Shown: positions 23,754-37,957, counted from the first letter of the stretch. The stretch is DNA of 64,000 nt from Bdellovibrio bacteriovorus (GCF_001592735.1 NZ_LUKE01000006.1:124001-188000); one strand, 5' to 3'. Notes: generated from the letters alone by a model not told the origin. Made by a program: numbers and translations.

Positions 23754-23886
23754 GCTCAAAAATGGGGGACTGTCTAAGTTTGAGACAGCTCTGATGATCT
23801 GTAATCCCGTATAGACGTTATGGGCCTTTAGATTTCGGGCACGAAGTTTGGAAGTATTCTGGCGGATTAAAACCCCAGGAGATTTT

Positions 23887-25053
23887 ATGAAGCGTTCCTT
23901 ACTCGCGGGTAGTTTATTTGTCATCACTTTGGCGCAAAGCCTGGCACTCGCCCAATTGGTGGATCTTCCGGATCCAGGTGGCGATACCGGCGGTCAGACC
24001 CAAGTGACTCCTCACAATCAGGCAACACCGCAAACGCAAACTCAGTATGCGGGTATTTTGCGGGTGGGGTCGATTTCGCGTAAAACCGGCGGGACCTTAT
24101 ATAAGGTTGATTTTGCGACGGCCGTTCGCTTGCAGCGCTTGGATGTTCGCGTTTCTTCAAATCGGGTTAAGATTTACTCTGCAACCCTTGTGACCACTTC
24201 AGGTAATAAAATTTCTGTTCGTCAGTTAAGCACGTCGGCGGTGTTAGAAACCAATGCCGTGGTGAATTCAGAAAATATCACGCTGAATGAAAACGTGGCT
24301 TCGATTGAGATTCTGATGGAAGCCTATGGTGGCGAAGCTGACGTGATTTTGACGGCGCTGGCCTCTTCAGATGTGCCCAAGATGTCTTTGCGCCAGGAAG
24401 TGAAGCCCCAAACTCCCGTCGTGGTTACGCCGACGATGCCAGAAGATTCCTATAATCCCGACACCTATGAGCCTGAAGATCCGACCGTGAATGATTCCTA
24501 CAGTCCTGGTAACGGCAGCGTTATCTATTACGGAAGTGCGAAATTCAGACCGGGCATGAGAGTTTTACTGGCTTGTGACCGCAAATGTTCTTACATCCAG
24601 TGGGTGACGACGGTGGTGCAAAATTTAGGGCGCGGTTATATTTTGATCGAGGGCGGACGTACCGTGTCTGCGAATGATTTGTCGGCCGCGACTCAATGTT
24701 ACGGATCTTTCTGTGTGAATGATCGTGTTTCCTCTGACGGTTATGAGGGCGTGATCTCGATGATATTTGAAAATGGAACGGCGGCGGTTCGCCGAGTTGT
24801 GGACGGCTATGAGTTCTTGGAAGAGGTGGGATATTTAACAAAGCTTAGTAGATATGAGCCCGCGCCGATCCCACAAGTGCAATTTCAACAATGCACCAGC
24901 AATAATGAATTTTGTACTGGGGATACGGTCCGCTATCGTGGTATCACGGTGAAAATTACGGATATCTATCGCAATGGCCAAGCACGCGTGCGCAATCCGT
25001 TGAACGGGCAGACCGCACTTGTTTTCATCCGCGAACTTATTTTCGTAAGATAA
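23887..25053 (+). CDS. Secreted protein: beta-rich domain plus SH3-like Cys repeats (paralogue 1)
   Basis: ATG 23887 follows AGGAG (23877-23881) and opens a signal peptide (LAGSLFVITLAQSLALAQ). Residues about 45-160 form a beta-rich domain. It begins GILRVGSISRKTGGTLY and includes LDVRVSSNRVKIYSATLV and ends GGEADVILTALASSDVPK. The same domain occurs in the next two genes. After a Pro/Asp/Thr linker, residues 205-388 carry about three SH3-like beta repeats. These are marked by paired Cys (CYGSFCVNDRV, CTSNNEFCTGDTV) and NG-A-V motifs (NGTAAVRRV, NGQARVR). No named function is recognised. It is probably exported, and either cell-wall associated or released. Confidence 0.8.
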   Translation: MKRSLLAGSLFVITLAQSLALAQLVDLPDPGGDTGGQTQVTPHNQATPQTQTQYAGILRVGSISRKTGGTLYKVDFATAVRLQRLDVRVSSNRVKIYSATLVTTSGNKISVRQLSTSAVLETNAVVNSENITLNENVASIEILMEAYGGEADVILTALASSDVPKMSLRQEVKPQTPVVVTPTMPEDSYNPDTYEPEDPTVNDSYSPGNGSVIYYGSAKFRPGMRVLLACDRKCSYIQWVTTVVQNLGRGYILIEGGRTVSANDLSAATQCYGSFCVNDRVSSDGYEGVISMIFENGTAAVRRVVDGYEFLEEVGYLTKLSRYEPAPIPQVQFQQCTSNNEFCTGDTVRYRGITVKITDIYRNGQARVRNPLNGQTALVFIRELIFVR

Positions 25054-25070
25054 TTTGGAGATAGCGGTTC

Positions 25071-26504
25071 ATGAAGCGCAGTTTGATTTTAATTTTAACG
25101 GTGTCATTGTTATTGCAGTCCACAGGCCATGCGGACTTTGCAGATCTTCCTGATCCAGGGGGCGACAGCTCATCGCAATCCGGATCCCCAGGCTCCGGTC
25201 AGCAGCCCGCCGCCGGAGAATATGCCGGATCGTTGACGATTGGCGGTCTTTCTCGCCGTACGGGTGGAACTGTTTATACAGCTCGTTTGCATAAACCACT
25301 GCCTTTGTCGCGCCTTGATGTGCGGGTCACCTTAAGCAAAGTGAAATTCTATTCGGTGACTTTGATCACGGAACAAGGCGAACGCTTTTTAGTTTCTGAG
25401 TTTAACAACACATCCGTTTTTGAGACAGGCACTTTGGTTTCTTCTAAAAATCTGGGAACTCAAAATGCCATTGCGTCTATTGAACTAGTGACCGAATCTT
25501 ATTCTGGTGAAGCCGATATTATTTTGACCGCACTTTCTAAATCAGAAGTTCCAAAGCTTTTATTGAAGGTGGAGGCGCCTAAGCCGGCGCCATCACCGGT
25601 TCCGGCACCTACGGCCACACCAGAGCCATCGCCAAGTCCCACCGCAACGCCGGCTCCAAATCCGACGCCAGCGCCGACGGTAACGCCGTCGCCATCGCCG
25701 GCTCCGGAACCTGACGACTCTTATAACATCCGGGTGGGCGATACCGTCCTTTACAACAGCAACATCGTGGGCAAGGTGCTAAAAGTTTTAGCCGATGACT
25801 ATGCGACCGTGGTTTTTGCCGATGGCAAACGCGAAGACGTGGATAGGGCCTTCTTAGAAAAATCCACGCGCTGTGTGGGAACTTTGTGTGAAGGTAAAAA
25901 AGTTTATTATAATGGCACTAAGGCACAGATTATTAATATTTTCTCTTCGGGCTGGGTGTACTTATCTTTGCGCAACGGGCAGAAGATTGTGGTGGATATG
26001 TACTTCGTTTCTGAGCAGAACCAGGGATGCAGCAAAGATGGCATCTGTGTTGGCGACGGTATTTTATATAAAAATCGTTATGACGGCACCGTGGTTGAGG
26101 TTTTATCTGAAGAACGAATTTTGATTCGCTTGGAAGGGTCAACGGCGACTCTCACTGTGGGTTCAAATCAATTAGCCAAGTCGCTGCAATGTACGGAAGG
26201 TTCCGCGCGCAGCTGTGTGGGTGAAAAAGTTTTGATCCAAGGAAATGGCGCGACCATTTTAGGTATTTATTCTAACGGCACGGCTAAGGTGCGTATGGAT
26301 AATCAAAATCGCGTCTTGTGGGTGAATCATAACAGTCTGACCAAGAATATCCGCTGCATGAAAAACATCTGCGTCGGGCAACGTGTGAGGTACGGAGTGT
26401 CCTCGGCGTTGGTGTTAGAAATTTACTCTAACGGAACGGCTCGTGTTGAAATCGGAATTTTGGGTAAGCAATATCTAGTGCGAGTGGATTCACTTCGTCC
26501 CTAA
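25071..26504 (+). CDS. Secreted protein: beta-rich domain plus five SH3-like Cys repeats (paralogue 2)
   Basis: A signal peptide (LILILTVSLLLQSTGHA) precedes a mature start ADFADLPDPGGDSS that is nearly identical to paralogue 1 (VDLPDPGGDT). Residues about 50-165 repeat the shared domain (GSLTIGGLSRRTGGTVY ... GEADIILTALSKSEVPK). A Pro/Ala/Thr/Ser linker (about 168-220) separates it from about five SH3-like repeats. Each has the pattern C-x(3-5)-C-x-G-x(2)-V-x-Y, with examples CVGTLCEGKKVYY, CSKDGICVGDGILY, CMKNICVGQRVRY, followed by IYSNGTAKVR-type hairpins. It lies 17 bases after paralogue 1, so the two form an operon. A strong terminator follows at 26532. Confidence 0.82.
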   Translation: MKRSLILILTVSLLLQSTGHADFADLPDPGGDSSSQSGSPGSGQQPAAGEYAGSLTIGGLSRRTGGTVYTARLHKPLPLSRLDVRVTLSKVKFYSVTLITEQGERFLVSEFNNTSVFETGTLVSSKNLGTQNAIASIELVTESYSGEADIILTALSKSEVPKLLLKVEAPKPAPSPVPAPTATPEPSPSPTATPAPNPTPAPTVTPSPSPAPEPDDSYNIRVGDTVLYNSNIVGKVLKVLADDYATVVFADGKREDVDRAFLEKSTRCVGTLCEGKKVYYNGTKAQIINIFSSGWVYLSLRNGQKIVVDMYFVSEQNQGCSKDGICVGDGILYKNRYDGTVVEVLSEERILIRLEGSTATLTVGSNQLAKSLQCTEGSARSCVGEKVLIQGNGATILGIYSNGTAKVRMDNQNRVLWVNHNSLTKNIRCMKNICVGQRVRYGVSSALVLEIYSNGTARVEIGILGKQYLVRVDSLRP

Positions 26505-26531
26505 AAAATTTCACGACTTTTCAATAAACGA

Positions 26532-26568
26532 CAAAGCCGACGGATGATTCTGTCGGCTTTGCGCTTTT
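26532..26568 (+). terminator. Rho-independent terminator after the paralogue 1-2 operon
   Basis: CAAAGCCGAC (26532-26541) pairs perfectly with GTCGGCTTTG (26552-26561) around a 10-base loop, followed by CGCTTTT. Confidence 0.82.
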
Positions 26569-26679
26569 ATAAAGCATTTTAATTCTCTTTGGACCCCTTT
26601 TGACACCAAAACGATGGCATAAGAATTGGAATAGGGATTTTTCGTCGTAAAAGATTGTTGAAGAACTAAGGAGTTTCCA

Positions 26680-27360
26680 ATGAAAAAACAAATCGTCTTG
26701 TCGGTCCTTTTGATGGCCTCAGTAAGTTACTTAACGGCACCTGCATATGGTCAGCTTCGCCCGCGCCCTCCAGGAGAGGGACGTCCCGGAGATGGACGCC
26801 CAGGCGATGGCCGTCCTGGAGACGGTAGACCTGGCGACGGCAGACCTGGTGAAAGACCCGGTCGTCCCGGTGATGGCAGACCCGGTGGCCCTGGTCATGG
26901 TCGTCCCGGCGATGGTGGTCGCCCAGGACATGGTAGACCAAGTCCTGGGTACCCTTTCCCAGGCCGCCCAGGTGAAGGTCGTCCTTGGCCTGCGCCAGCT
27001 CCAGATTACAGAGACTCCGTTTTCGTTTCTTCTGTGACGCGTGCAACCGGTGGAGAGTGGTTCCGTGTATCTTTCAGAAACCCAGTTGTTCTTCGTTATT
27101 TCGATGTCACGGTGGTGGCTGCGGGTGTGCGTCTTCATGAAGTGAAAGTTCATACTTGGTCAGGTCGCACATTCTATGTGCCACAGATGAGCCCCTCTCC
27201 AGTATTTTACTCTCCAAGCTCGGTCGGAGCTTCGTACTTTAACGGTGAGGCGATTCGAGCGATCGACATCCGTGCTGAAGCCATGGGAGGCTATGCAGAT
27301 CTAGTGATTCAAGCCACCGGAGATTACGACACTCCTCGAATGGATGTCAGCCGCTTCTAG
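26680..27360 (+). CDS. Secreted G-D-G-R-P repeat protein with the shared beta-rich domain (paralogue 3)
   Basis: A signal peptide (QIVLSVLLMASVSYLTAPAYGQ) is followed by about 75 residues of GDGRPG-type low-complexity repeat (residues 27-105). The C-terminal 120 residues match the domain of the two preceding genes: DSVFVSSVTRATGGEWFRVSF, FDVTVVAAGVRLHEVKV, and MGGYADLVIQATGDYDTPRM. Here the repeat comes first and the domain last, the reverse of paralogues 1 and 2. The repeat units use varied synonymous codons, so the protein sequence seems selected and not simply a recent DNA expansion. AAGGAG precedes ATG 26680. Confidence 0.82.
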   Translation: MKKQIVLSVLLMASVSYLTAPAYGQLRPRPPGEGRPGDGRPGDGRPGDGRPGDGRPGERPGRPGDGRPGGPGHGRPGDGGRPGHGRPSPGYPFPGRPGEGRPWPAPAPDYRDSVFVSSVTRATGGEWFRVSFRNPVVLRYFDVTVVAAGVRLHEVKVHTWSGRTFYVPQMSPSPVFYSPSSVGASYFNGEAIRAIDIRAEAMGGYADLVIQATGDYDTPRMDVSRF

Positions 27361-31323: not shown

Positions 31324-32019
31324 TTAACATTGAGGCGCGTGCACGTACACCAGCGTTTGATTGTCTAAACCATAGCGCACAAGTTTTTTAAGGCGTCCGG
31401 TTGGAAATGCCGGGCAGCCTTGCCCCATCACCTTGATGGAATCATTTTGCTTCATTTCTTTGAGTTCATGCAAGACGACGCCGGCGTTAAAGGCATCGGC
31501 ATTTGATTTTTCTAAGCCCCACAGTTTGATACCTTCACAGTCCCCATAAACCTTAGACCAATTTTTACCGCTTTGGTGGCAGCCGCGAGTCACATAAAGT
31601 CCGGGGCGGGTCATGTACTTACTTGATCCTTTGCGGTTTTTACAGCTATCAAGTTTGCCGTCGCCATTGCGATCCCCATCGATAAAGGTTTTGCCTTTAA
31701 GTATGTAAGCTCCGCCATGGGCGACATAGTCTTCACTTAAAACGTCGCACGCTTTAAAGTCGACGATGAAAGCACGCTTTTCTTTCGAGCTGCGGCTGTA
31801 ATCCACCAGTAACGCCACCGGGTCTTCTTGCAAGGACATGTTTTTATCGGCAAAGGCTTTCGCCAATCTTTTTAAGGCCACGGCAGGTAATGAAACCTTC
31901 ATACGATTTTCACCCTGAACCAATCTCTTAAGGCAGTCAGATGAAACGGTGAAGCCACCTGCAGATGCAGACACTGATAAGAAAATCCCAAAGATAAGGG
32001 GGACCAAAGCTTTAAGCAT
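31324..32019 (-). CDS. Secreted murein L,D-transpeptidase-catalytic-domain-family protein
   Basis: A signal peptide (LVPLIFGIFLSVSASA) leads into a domain of the PF13645-like murein L,D-transpeptidase family. The motifs are RPGLYVTRGCHQSGKNW, GIKLWGLEKSNADAFNAGVVLHE with the candidate catalytic His, and the terminal MGQGCPAFP with the candidate catalytic Cys. L,D-transpeptidases form 3-3 mDAP links or swap D-amino acids. Predatory bdellovibrios use many such enzymes on prey wall. Whether this one acts on prey is inferred only. Confidence 0.8.
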   Translation of the reverse strand: MLKALVPLIFGIFLSVSASAGGFTVSSDCLKRLVQGENRMKVSLPAVALKRLAKAFADKNMSLQEDPVALLVDYSRSSKEKRAFIVDFKACDVLSEDYVAHGGAYILKGKTFIDGDRNGDGKLDSCKNRKGSSKYMTRPGLYVTRGCHQSGKNWSKVYGDCEGIKLWGLEKSNADAFNAGVVLHELKEMKQNDSIKVMGQGCPAFPTGRLKKLVRYGLDNQTLVYVHAPQC

Positions 32020-34989: not shown

Positions 34990-34994
34990 GGCAG
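34965..34994 (-). terminator. Minus-strand terminator embedded in the 3' end of ilvA
   Basis: TCTGCCTTAAG (34970-34980) pairs perfectly over 11 bp with CTTAAGGCAGA (34985-34995) around a GAAA loop. On the minus strand it is followed by TTTTT (34969-34965). It serves the gene at 35007 and overlaps the ilvA stop codon. Confidence 0.72.
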
Positions 34995-35006
34995 ACTGTA
35001 AATTTA

Positions 35007-35378
35007 TTATTTAGCTTGAGAGCGAACAACAACCCATTTGTTATTTTGGCATTTGCGTACGACGCGAACCTCTTTGCCAATAGCATAATCGTATTCATCC
35101 GCCGTAAAGTAACTACCCTCGGTGCAAGAAGGCGTGGGGTTGTAGATATATGATTCACGTTCTTCCGGCGTCATGAAAGATCCGTCACGACAGATACGCG
35201 GAACGCTGCGAACTTCGCCACGGACATAAAGACTCATCCAGCCGGTGCTTCCTTCGATACAACCCATTTTGAAAGTGCGAATTTTTACGCCGCCTCCAGT
35301 ATTGCCGCCACCCCCCACGCCCTGGGTCCAAGCAAGCATCGGAAAAAGCAAAGTCATAAGTGCTAAGCCGAGTTTCAT
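35007..35378 (-). CDS. Small secreted Cys-module protein (one full and one partial module)
   Basis: A signal peptide (LGLALMTLLFPMLAWTQ) and a Gly-rich start are followed by a module. It reads CIEGSTGW, then RICRDGSFMTPEERESYIYNP, then SCTEGSYF, and ends KCQNNKWVVVR. The same module occurs twice in the protein at 36422. The consensus is C-x-E-G, about 20-25 residues, C-x-[ND]-G-[ST]-F-M-T-x-x-E, then Y-x-x-N-P and the next C-x-E-G. It overlaps the upstream DUF4423-like gene by 4 bases (ATGA), so it is co-translated with a regulator. The function is not recognised. Confidence 0.74.
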   Translation of the reverse strand: MKLGLALMTLLFPMLAWTQGVGGGGNTGGGVKIRTFKMGCIEGSTGWMSLYVRGEVRSVPRICRDGSFMTPEERESYIYNPTPSCTEGSYFTADEYDYAIGKEVRVVRKCQNNKWVVVRSQAK

Positions 35379-36004
35379 ATATAGTCTTCCTCTTTTTTTT
35401 CGTTTTTAACTTCAAGATTAATCACACCGGTATGGGTCCATGAGAATAAGACGTTTCTCGCGGCTTCTTTTTCAGATTTTTCCGTCAATTCCCGCAAGGC
35501 TTGATTCACCTTACCGATAAAGGTTCGAGCCAAAGGGCGGGTCGTCGCCAAGGACACAGTTTCATAAGTACCGGGTTTATCGTCGGACAACTGGGCGATA
35601 ATACTGACAGTCATTGAAAGATATTCTTTTACGGAAATGTCACCTAAATCTAAAAATTGAAACTTTGTAACGACGCGACCATCTTCAACGGTCCACAGTC
35701 CGCTTCTTAAAAGGCGTGAAGAAAAATAACGGGCCAAGTCCTCGGATATGCCAAGTTTGGCTGACGTTCTTTTAAGCGCCATCAGTTCGGTGGTAATAAA
35801 CGGGATGACGCAGAATAAGGTGAACTTGTGATTCTTGCGAATTTCAGACTTTACTAAGTCCAATAGATCTTCATCGCTCAGGTTTTCATCAGAAAACTGG
35901 GAGCTATCTTCTTTGGCATATTTCCAAAGTGATAAGAGCTTTAGCTCATTTTGATCCCAAGATCTTAACGATCTTGAAGATGGATTCCCGGTTATCTGCA
36001 TCAA
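35375..36004 (-). CDS. DUF4423/TIGR02147-like regulator C-terminal-type protein (no HTH)
   Basis: The sequence from ITTELMALKRTSAKLGIS through FSSRLLRSGLWTVEDGR to LATTRPLARTFIGKVNQALREL resembles the C-terminal (DUF4423) part of TIGR02147 regulators. The usual N-terminal HTH is missing. The HTH function may be supplied by the XRE gene immediately upstream, which it overlaps by 59 bases. That arrangement looks like a split two-gene version of a normally fused protein. The start at 36004 is the only evident ATG, so the overlap length depends on it. It has no signal peptide and is probably cytoplasmic. Confidence 0.65.
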   Translation of the reverse strand: MMQITGNPSSRSLRSWDQNELKLLSLWKYAKEDSSQFSDENLSDEDLLDLVKSEIRKNHKFTLFCVIPFITTELMALKRTSAKLGISEDLARYFSSRLLRSGLWTVEDGRVVTKFQFLDLGDISVKEYLSMTVSIIAQLSDDKPGTYETVSLATTRPLARTFIGKVNQALRELTEKSEKEAARNVLFSWTHTGVINLEVKNEKKEEDYI

Positions 36005-36311
36005 GTCTTCCGATTTTTGCTAGGACATTTTCTTTATTACTAGATTCAAAGGAAGCCTTAGAGGCTTCGATAATTTTTTGTTCTAAGAGTTTTTCAACAT
36101 CAATGCCCATGAGTTCTAAAACACAAAGTAAGCGGTCGGTTTTCATTTCGACTTTTCCTTGCATGTAAACATTCATTTGACTGGGCTTAAGATTTAAAGA
36201 GGCCGCAAGATCTTTCTGTCGAACACCCAAGGTTTGGGAAAGGGTTCGAATCTGGGACATGACCTTATCTCGTTTAGATTCGGTAAGTTCTTGAGGTTCA
36301 CCCATCATCAT
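35946..36311 (-). CDS. XRE-family helix-turn-helix protein
   Basis: Residues about 20-75 form a Cro/C1-type HTH: LSQTLGVRQKDLAASLNLK, PSQMNVYMQGKVEMKTDRL, and LLCVLELMGIDVEKLL. The C-terminal 45 residues are charged and helical. Three ATG codons in a row (36311, 36308, 36305) are possible starts. The third has the best spacing from AGGA. It is the first gene of an apparent three-gene minus-strand operon: XRE, DUF4423-like, and secreted Cys-module protein. Its candidate promoter lies at 36341-36369. Confidence 0.8.
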   Translation of the reverse strand: MMMGEPQELTESKRDKVMSQIRTLSQTLGVRQKDLAASLNLKPSQMNVYMQGKVEMKTDRLLCVLELMGIDVEKLLEQKIIEASKASFESSNKENVLAKIGRLDADNRESIFKIVKILGSK

Positions 36312-36340
36312 CGTCCTAGAGAATTAGTTTGCTGATCTGT

Positions 36341-36369
36341 GGTTTACTTGCTTTAACGGGGCTTTTCAA
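36341..36369 (-). promoter_or_regulatory. Candidate promoter for the XRE-led operon
   Basis: Read on the minus strand: TTGAAA (36369-36364), 17 bases, TAAACC (36346-36341). It lies 30 bases before the first ATG. Confidence 0.5.
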
Positions 36370-36379
36370 TGGGTAAAGA

Positions 36380-36413
36380 TTACAGAGGAAAGGCAGGGGC
36401 CTCTCCTCTGTAA
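36380..36413. terminator. Hairpin between the Cys-module gene and the XRE promoter
   Basis: TTACAGAGGA (36380-36389) pairs perfectly with TCCTCTGTAA (36404-36413), with an inner AGGC/GCCT stem. On the minus strand it is followed only by TCTTTA. It may be a terminator for the gene at 36422 or a regulatory hairpin. Confidence 0.5.
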
Positions 36414-36421
36414 TAGGTCTA

Positions 36422-36889
36422 TTATAGACCGCGTACTGGAACCCATTTATTGCTTTTGCAAACAACAGTGATGGATTTGTCAGCTTGCTCTTCAGACAGG
36501 TTACGGAAATAGCTGTCAGCGCGAGCCACCGAGTAAGCCCCTTCTACGCAAGTAGATTTAGGGTTACGAACGTAAGCTGCTTTTTCAGCGGCCGTCATGA
36601 AAGTACCATTTTTGCAAACGCGAACTTCAGAAGTTTCTCTGTCTTGACCTGGAAGCTGTTTTACGAAGATGGCTTTTGAGCCTTCAGTACAAGTAGTGCG
36701 TGGGTTGTAGATGTAGGCTGCTTTTTCAGCAGGAGTCATAAACGTACCGTTTTTGCAAACGCGCACTTCGGTGATGTCTTTGTCCGTAGTTACATTGTGC
36801 TTAACGATAAGGGCGATGTTCCCTTCAGTACAAGCAGCAGATGCAGAACCAGCGATCAATAAACCAGCGATAAATACAAGAGCTTTCAT
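36422..36889 (-). CDS. Small secreted protein with two Cys-modules
   Basis: The signal peptide (KALVFIAGLLIAGSASAA) is followed at once by CTEG. Two near-identical modules then occur, each with VRVCKNGTFMT-[PA]-AEKAAY, the first ending YIYNPRTTCTEGS and the second YVRNPKSTCVEGA. The C-terminal cap is VVCKSNKWVPVRG. The same module and cap occur in the 35007 protein. The even Cys number (six or more) fits an oxidised secreted protein. It has a strong-looking minus-strand promoter at 36936-36965 and an AGGAGG-type ribosome site. Function unknown. Confidence 0.78.
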   Translation of the reverse strand: MKALVFIAGLLIAGSASAACTEGNIALIVKHNVTTDKDITEVRVCKNGTFMTPAEKAAYIYNPRTTCTEGSKAIFVKQLPGQDRETSEVRVCKNGTFMTAAEKAAYVRNPKSTCVEGAYSVARADSYFRNLSEEQADKSITVVCKSNKWVPVRGL

Positions 36890-36935
36890 TTTTAATCCCT
36901 CCTAATGGGTTTGTTTGTCTCTTCTTGTGGGACAG

Positions 36936-36965
36936 GGTATATCCCCGCCCAATACTTTTCCTCAA
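36936..36965 (-). promoter_or_regulatory. Candidate promoter for the two-module gene
   Basis: Read on the minus strand: TTGAGG (36965-36960), 18 bases, TATACC (36941-36936), about 45 bases before the ATG at 36889. Confidence 0.52.
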
Positions 36966-37059
36966 AGCCAGACGCAGCGCTGTAAAGTAAAGAGTTCTGT
37001 TAACTGAATGGAATAATCCGTTATCGTTCCGTCGTCCTTAGAACTTTTCGGTTATCGCG

Positions 37060-37094
37060 AAAAAAAAAGGGATCTTTCAAGATCCCTTTTTTTT
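37060..37094. terminator. Strong bidirectional terminator overlapping a coding end
   Basis: A run of nine A (37060-37068), GGGATC (37069-37074), loop TTTCAA, GATCCC (37081-37086) and a run of eight T (37087-37094). The TGA stop of the minus-strand DUF4423 gene (37079-37077) lies in the loop, and the last codons (KKKGS) lie in the hairpin arm. Confidence 0.88.
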
Positions 37095-37868
37095 GGTCGA
37101 AACAGAGATGGGAGTAGAGTGAATCGAAACTTGGAGCAATTGGTCAGCGTCCGTGGTCGGACGGGCCGCTAGCTCATTTAAGCGCCGTTCAAAGAGTTCT
37201 ATTTCTTGGCTTAAAGCGGTCCATTCCTCTTGGTTCACCGAAAGTAAAACCGTCAAATTTTTTCGTTGAGAAGAAGGGTGCGTATCAATCCCACGTTTTG
37301 CGATATCAAGCGCGCGCTGGTGAAAGCGCTCCACGATGAATGAAGAAGTTGCTTGATCATGAGATCGCAAAGAGGGGTCCAAGGTCACTTGACCATTCAA
37401 AGATTTTTTCCAAAACCCTTCCGTAAATAGAAAATCGATGGATTTTTCAATGCTGTTTTTATTTAAAAGTCCCCCCAACATGCGTTCGATCGTGGGGCTG
37501 TCGGCAGAAAAACCGCGCACTTCAGCTAAAGCCATGACGTAAGGATTGAACCAGTTTTTTAAAAGGTGAAGCGACTTACCCCCCCCCCTGGGGCGGGAGG
37601 AAATATGTTCGGCGATGCGCTCTTTTTCTTGAGGAGTAAGAAAAAATAATTCGGCAAAAAAGGGCAGGTTTTTTGGAGTGATGTTGCGCTGACGATTTAA
37701 AACTTGAGAAACAAAAGCTTGAGAAAAGGAATCGACTTCGCGACAACGCTTTCTTAGGCTGAAACCGCCATTTTTTTTCAGATGCATGTACATCTCGAAT
37801 AAAAAATCACTGGCAGAATCAAAGTCTGCGATATCCGGTCGCCGCGTTTTTGTGTTGTTTGAGTCCAT
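37077..37868 (-). CDS. TIGR02147/DUF4423 family regulator
   Basis: This is the full-length version of the family. The N-terminal helical HTH-like part reads FLFEMYMHLKKNGGFSLRK, then FVSQVLNRQRNITPKNLPF, then LFFLTPQEKERIAEH. The C-terminal DUF4423 domain has LKNWFNPYVMALAEVRGFSAD, SIDFLFTEGFWKK and a final segment LTVLLSVNQEEW. At 263 residues it is near the family norm (about 270). Such proteins are abundant in Bdellovibrio, and their role as regulators is predicted. A poly-Gly/Pro stretch is encoded by a run of C at 37581-37590, which could be prone to slippage. It may regulate the neighbouring Cys-module genes. Confidence 0.82.
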   Translation of the reverse strand: MDSNNTKTRRPDIADFDSASDFLFEMYMHLKKNGGFSLRKRCREVDSFSQAFVSQVLNRQRNITPKNLPFFAELFFLTPQEKERIAEHISSRPRGGGKSLHLLKNWFNPYVMALAEVRGFSADSPTIERMLGGLLNKNSIEKSIDFLFTEGFWKKSLNGQVTLDPSLRSHDQATSSFIVERFHQRALDIAKRGIDTHPSSQRKNLTVLLSVNQEEWTALSQEIELFERRLNELAARPTTDADQLLQVSIHSTPISVSTKKKGS

Positions 37869-37957
37869 TTTGTCCCCTCGTCGGCAAACTAAGAGAAAAA
37901 ATGGATTTCAAACAAGCCCTATTGCAGATTAGAAAAGTTAAGGCTTGTCGCAATTTT

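What the first reader, a model, noticed from the sequence alone, without database searches (positions are those of the whole stretch)
35007..37868. Cys-module secreted proteins clustered with XRE and DUF4423 regulators
Two small secreted proteins share a repeated module (C-x-E-G ... C-x-[ND]-G-[ST]-F-M-T ... Y-x-x-N-P ... C-x-E-G, with an NKWV cap). One (35007) is coupled by a 4-base overlap to a DUF4423-type protein. That protein is coupled to an XRE protein. Next to them sit the two-module protein (36422) and a full TIGR02147 regulator (37077). Regulators and secreted Cys-rich proteins in one tight cluster suggest an undescribed regulated secreted factor, perhaps used in predation or as a toxin/decoy. 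The module pattern is seen directly; the function is inferred.
Basis: partly seen in the sequence, partly recalled or inferred. Interest (0 to 1): 0.72.

Follow-up and report, generated by a model that had tools for sequence, protein, structure and literature searches.

The report
Regulator-paired cassette encoding exported cysteine proteins
In a Bdellovibrio-type bacterium this stretch carries a small self-contained gene cassette, a two-part gene regulator made together with exported cysteine-module proteins, and the same regulator pair recurs across the phylum with very different exported proteins attached, which points to an undescribed family of regulated exported factors whose job is still unknown.

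Summary
B (35007-35378) and A (36422-36889) share a two-Cys module and flank an XRE gene and a short DUF4423-like gene. The order A-XRE-DUF4423-B recurs in five loci of four genomes. The short DUF4423 protein lacks the HTH that TIGR02147 regulators carry fused to DUF4423. A separate XRE gene precedes it in 31 of 32 intact loci, against 0 of 62 full-length genes. The pair is best read as a split TIGR02147 regulator. The next gene, usually overlapping by 1-4 bases, always encodes a signal-peptide protein with a glycine-rich mature N-terminus; beyond that its sequence falls into at least 13 unrelated groups. A held-out locus found by regulator sequence alone fits. The full TIGR02147 gene at 37077 is not part of the conserved unit. 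At this site six of six congeners carry a different gene. Use in predation, as toxin or as decoy, is untested. No paper describing the association was found.

The parts
36422..36889 (-). Gene A: exported protein, 155 aa, signal peptide (MKALVFIAGLLIAGSASA) then two full Cys modules and a closing half module; no glycine block
   Evidence: 44-47% identical to A of the other four cassettes
35946..36311 (-). XRE/Cro-type HTH protein, 121 aa; DNA-binding half of the proposed split regulator
   Evidence: (HTH_37, E=2e-5, below gathering score)
35375..36004 (-). Short DUF4423-like protein without its own N-terminal HTH (likely ATG at 36001); partner half of the proposed split regulator; overlaps XRE by 56-59 bases and B by 4
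35007..35378 (-). Gene B: exported protein, 123 aa, signal peptide, glycine block QGVGGGGNTGGG, then Cys modules ending in NKWV
36381..36412 (-). Hairpin (TACAGAGGA...TCCTCTGTA) between A and XRE; the other four cassettes also have a hairpin here, most with a T-rich tail, so A probably ends its own transcript
   Evidence: sequence; not called by the scan because the T run is weak in the window copy
36960..36986 (-). Block about 70-100 bases upstream of A, partly conserved among the five cassettes; possible promoter or 5' leader element
   Evidence: weak, function not tested
37077..37868 (-). Full-length TIGR02147 regulator (HTH + DUF4423); neighbour, not part of the conserved cassette
   Evidence: absent at the four other cassettes
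37061..37094 (.). Terminator-like hairpin GGGATCTTTCAAGATCCC with A/T tracts on both sides, at the end of the TIGR02147 gene, separating it from A

Best explanation
A compact regulator-plus-exported-protein cassette. Shown: a signal-peptide protein with a glycine-rich start (B), and in this subtype a second exported Cys-module protein (A), are encoded with an XRE HTH protein and a short DUF4423 protein; that pair stands in the same place as a fused HTH-DUF4423 (TIGR02147) regulator does elsewhere. Inferred: XRE binds DNA at the cassette, DUF4423 (winged-helix-like N-terminal half plus conserved C-terminal half) is its co-regulator and sensor, and together they switch expression of B and probably A. 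Translational coupling keeps regulator and cargo in proportion. Most likely the DUF4423 half senses the state of its own cargo, for example un-exported precursor or a returned fragment carrying the conserved glycine-rich start, giving feedback on production (this last step is the least certain). A and B then work as disulphide-stabilised exported proteins in the envelope or outside.
For: Order A-XRE-DUF4423-B in five loci. Separate XRE upstream of 31 of 32 intact short DUF4423 genes and 0 of 62 full-length ones: split versus fused form. All 32 are followed by a signal-peptide protein with glycine-rich mature start; by the lenient criterion (GG within 20 residues of the cleavage site) 28 of 30 after hand check, versus 19 of 478 background genes followed by such a protein (Fisher p=3e-31). 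Own-genome DUF4423 genes picked only by Pfam score: 6 of 30 versus 4% (p=0.002). Payloads form at least 13 groups. Cys modules next to DUF4423 in 9 of 9 loci, with fused regulators in the other families. Held-out locus L265 has XRE, DUF4423 and a Gly-start Cys-containing exported protein. MarR-type winged-helix proteins are the best PDB sequence matches of the DUF4423 N-terminal half, weak at E about 0.002.
Against: No DNA binding, transcript or export data. No clear operator shared by all five cassettes. Hairpins between A and XRE argue against one four-gene transcript. Most DUF4423 genes of this genome have no exported protein recognised behind them (18 of 30), so DUF4423 does not need one. 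The AlphaFold model of the DUF4423-like protein was too poor to use (pLDDT 43). The sensing step is inference only.
Confidence: 0.6

Rival explanations
1. Envelope maintenance: A and B are structural or binding proteins of the periplasm or outer membrane, and the cassette is an ordinary condition-responsive switch that senses an outside cue, not its own cargo.
For: Signal peptides, paired cysteines and repeat architecture; two Cys cassettes in one genome.
Against: Absent from most close relatives; no known envelope family matches.
Confidence: 0.3
2. Antagonism or predation effector cassette: A/B act on prey or rival cells, and the regulator keeps them silent until needed.
For: Patchy distribution (4 of 66 family genomes), a different gene at the same site in congeners, exchangeable payloads, predatory lineage.
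Against: No toxin, enzyme or immunity domain found; fold search found nothing; no immunity-like gene; not tested in any assay.
Confidence: 0.15
3. Peptide signalling: the exported protein is a pro-signal. Its glycine-rich N-terminal part is released outside or in the periplasm and re-imported, where the DUF4423 half reads it, as in Gram-positive regulator/pro-peptide pairs.
For: One cassette encodes a peptide of only about 54 aa, almost all signal peptide plus glycine block (L036); the glycine-rich start is the only shared part of otherwise unrelated cargo; regulator and cargo are always adjacent.
Against: Many cargoes are long (up to 395 aa with short DUF4423, 543 aa with fused regulators); glycine blocks carry little sequence specificity; no importer or protease gene in the cassettes; no TPR-type peptide-binding domain found.
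Confidence: 0.12
4. XRE/DUF4423 is a toxin-antitoxin pair that happens to sit beside secreted genes.
For: Small adjacent genes with overlapping frames and an XRE member; weak MqsA-type match of XRE (E=0.009).
Against: The DUF4423 half is related to a regulator domain that is fused to HTH in TIGR02147; the third, exported gene is invariant.
Confidence: 0.05

Closest known systems
TIGR02147 (Fsuc_second) / PF14394 DUF4423 regulators
   Same: Short DUF4423 proteins are homologous to the C-terminal part (14 of 23 match PF14394, 8 of 23 TIGR02147 at E<=0.01); part of the full-length genes are also followed by an exported protein, often with a GNGG start
   Different: HTH is on a separate XRE gene; the short form always has an exported partner; the window protein itself scores no hit
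XRE-DUF397 pairs of Streptomyces (PMC10364602, PMC6262351)
   Same: XRE gene followed by a small partner gene, many paralogous pairs, acting as regulators
   Different: Partner is DUF4423, not DUF397; a third, exported gene is always present
RRNPP regulators with adjacent pro-peptide genes (PlcR-PapR, Rgg-SHP, ComR-ComS; general knowledge, PMC7564271)
   Same: HTH regulator next to a gene for an exported small protein
   Different: No TPR domain found; two-gene regulator; cargo often large; Gram-negative

Membership tests
TIGR02147 / DUF4423 | DUF4423 domain homology of the 35375-36004 protein | tested here: inconclusive
   no hit for the protein itself; its profile relatives hit PF14394 to 1.9e-20 and their profile finds full-length proteins at E down to about 1e-16
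TIGR02147 / DUF4423 | N-terminal HTH and DUF4423 in one ~270 aa protein (the 35375-36004 protein) | tested here: not met
   209 aa, no HTH domain match; XRE is a separate gene. Filed as a split relative, not a member
TIGR02147 / DUF4423 | NCBIfam cut-off reached by the 37077-37868 protein | tested here: met
   70.5 bits against 50
XRE-DUF397 pair | DUF397 domain in the partner | tested here: not met
   no DUF397 match
RRNPP peptide regulators | TPR peptide-binding domain | tested here: not met
   no TPR family match in XRE, DUF4423-like or TIGR02147 proteins
RRNPP peptide regulators | exported pro-peptide is cut, re-imported and bound | not testable with these tools
   needs peptide assays
Toxin-antitoxin or secreted toxin cassette | toxic protein and neutralising partner | not testable with these tools
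   no toxin domain found; toxicity not assayed

The most novel reading that the evidence does not exclude
A phylum-wide modular system in Bdellovibrionota in which a DUF4423 regulator (fused to HTH or split into XRE + DUF4423) is hard-wired to an exported protein whose glycine-rich mature start is the recognition tag, so that the cell senses export or return of its own cargo and adjusts production; cargo is exchanged freely while tag and regulator stay.
Probability: 0.25. Interest if true: 0.82.

Novelty: new variant of a known kind. Interest (0 to 1): 0.6.

Why it matters
DUF4423/TIGR02147 is a very large paralogous regulator family in these genomes (39 over cut-off here; profile matches in 126 of 144 class genomes) and has no described function that I could find; one proteome paper merely lists a DUF4423 protein as up-regulated during growth in prey (PMC12546842). 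A fixed link between this family and exported proteins gives a first testable function, supplies a way to find a hidden set of exported proteins in predatory bacteria, and offers very small natural cassettes to test it in.

Tried and rejected
Two scans of genome contigs (A alone, then the DUF4423 alignment) found nothing, so no organism names and no alignment of relatives eligible for folding. AlphaFold on A with B (pLDDT 59: repeated beta-hairpin plus helix) and on the DUF4423-like protein alone (pLDDT 43) was too weak; Foldseek on the former gave only chance matches. Shared operator search across five cassettes gave no convincing palindrome. A DNA pattern for GNGG genome-wide was no better than its reversed control; of the 30 loci checked, three had signal peptide + GNGG: two are lipoproteins, the third sits beside a DUF4423 gene. 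Rejected: TIGR02147 gene 37077 as part of the unit (absent at the other four cassettes); weak Pfam hits of A such as PF04879 and PF05006 (chance level); the 'male_kill_WMK' NCBIfam hit of XRE (33 bits against a cut-off of 300, HTH region only).

Full report
What was claimed and what is there. Every ORF is present as described, on the minus strand. In the direction of transcription the order is TIGR02147 regulator (37868-37077), A (36889-36422), XRE (36311-35946), short DUF4423-like (36004-35375), B (35378-35007). B overlaps the end of the DUF4423-like gene by 4 bases and the DUF4423-like gene starts inside XRE (56-59 bases). Neither A nor B has a credible match in Pfam or NCBIfam, and A's profile has none in PDB sequences.

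The conserved unit. A search of the own genome finds a second copy of the pair of Cys proteins at C1:123788-125666. Among 100 relatives only three further genomes have it, and a family-wide profile search keeps the number at 4 of 66 genomes. The ORFs around these places show the same four genes in the same order each time: A, XRE, short DUF4423, B. Identity to the window copy is 44-47% for A, 30-34% for B, 43-51% for DUF4423, 42-54% for XRE. The TIGR02147 gene is not beside the other four copies. In six of six congeners the corresponding place between the threonine dehydratase-type gene and msrA holds a single different gene and no cassette, so the window genome has a replacement or insertion here; the cassette GC (43.8%) differs little from the window (45.7%).

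A profile of A was run over 369 phylum genomes. Beside the five known loci, four loci in two other families match (best E 5e-15 to 2e-4); a tenth match (G025, E=0.007) is a long unrelated repeat protein. All four have a DUF4423 gene adjacent: in two the order is TIGR02147, GNGG-type exported protein, Cys protein; in two the regulator is divergent from the Cys protein. So 9 of 9 loci. In these families the Cys module is joined to a second Cys-containing domain, which resembles the cargo of the third cassette of the own genome (L040).

A more general cassette. Searching with the short DUF4423 protein found further short homologues in many genomes of the order and beyond. Each was read for neighbours. 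A separate XRE gene lies directly upstream in 29 of 30 intact loci, plus L036 and the held-out L265: 31 of 32. None of 62 full-length DUF4423/TIGR02147 proteins has such a gene. Since TIGR02147 proteins carry an HTH on the same chain, this looks like the split and fused form of one regulator. Directly downstream, usually with a 1-4 base overlap, is always a protein with a signal peptide and a glycine-rich start of the mature chain (for example QSVGGGGSGGGG, GDLGGGGSMG, DVVGGGTLAE, DRQGGGTLR, GNGGGTMKA). Automatic scoring (GG within 20 residues of a crude cleavage site) gave 26 of 32 including two gene fragments; after hand check of two missed signal peptides (L040, L133) and removal of the fragments (L144, L170) 28 of 30. 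Of 478 non-DUF4423 genes in 464 kb of the own genome 19 (4%) are followed by such a protein, many of them membrane segments or false calls. The remaining two of 30 (L041, L132) start GSGSG and GNGSG.

Full-length regulators. In a set chosen by similarity to the short form 29 of 62 are followed by a GG-start exported protein, often GNGG[DFG]. That set is biased. Thirty own-genome genes chosen only by Pfam score give 12 followed by a signal-peptide protein and 6 with GG, still above background (p=0.002). Many of these cargoes contain an HE-type motif, so they are a different class of exported protein.

Cargo exchange. After removal of signal peptide and glycine block, the cargoes of the short cassettes fall into 13 groups with no detectable similarity between groups (phmmer E<0.01); the largest are a ~55 aa type (6), a ~70 aa type (7) and the Cys-module type (5). 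Regulator pair and glycine start are constant, cargo is not.

Held-out check. The last profile search returned one short DUF4423 protein outside the class (L265). Its neighbours were read only afterwards: XRE overlapping it upstream, and downstream, with a 4-base overlap, a signal-peptide protein starting GDSIRGSGGGG and carrying several cysteines.

How it most likely works. Shown: gene content, order, coupling, split/fused relation, constant glycine start, exchangeable cargo. Inferred: XRE binds DNA, DUF4423 modulates it, together they set production of the exported protein; the constant N-terminal part of the cargo is the best candidate for what the regulator recognises. The five Cys-type cassettes have a hairpin between A and XRE, so A is probably a separate transcript under the same control, with a partly conserved block upstream. 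The role of A and B outside the cytoplasm is unknown; paired cysteines in a repeated unit suggest a disulphide-stabilised binding or structural protein.

Limits. Signal peptides were called with a simple home-made rule. Loci are related by descent, so p-values overstate independence, although many families and 13 cargo groups are involved. No structure of usable quality was obtained. Literature: no held paper mentions TIGR02147, one mentions DUF4423 in a proteome table; many subscription papers are not held, so absence of a description is not proof.

Noticed in passing
L041 5648-6808 (G035:C19): A DUF4423-like domain fused to a histidine kinase (386 aa), near a short DUF4423 gene without XRE that is followed by a small exported protein; a second kinase-like gene lies on the other side.
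   Followed up: no
L095, L149, L163, L164, L165, L169, L173, L176 (downstream of TIGR02147): Exported proteins coupled to full-length TIGR02147 often share GNGG near the mature start and an [LIV]HExx[YH]-like motif, possibly a large undescribed metallopeptidase-like family.
   Followed up: partly
window 34990-37950 against L221-L225, L228: Between the threonine dehydratase-type gene and msrA six congeners have one different gene (SFRSDYWCPYVC..., solute-binding-like); the window genome has the cassette and a TIGR02147 gene there instead.
   Followed up: yes
L181-L186, L229-L232, L040 5559-5909: An unnamed exported Cys-containing domain (MxC...IVLSxG...YxxF...C...TxDxxxCxVGFVC), joined to Cys modules or used alone as cassette cargo; no Pfam match.
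   Followed up: partly
window 23848-27360: Three consecutive exported proteins rich in proline and glycine (DLPDPGGDTGG; RPGDG repeats).
   Followed up: no
window 31324-32019: Exported YkuD_2-type L,D-transpeptidase-like protein (Pfam E=4.5e-16).
   Followed up: no
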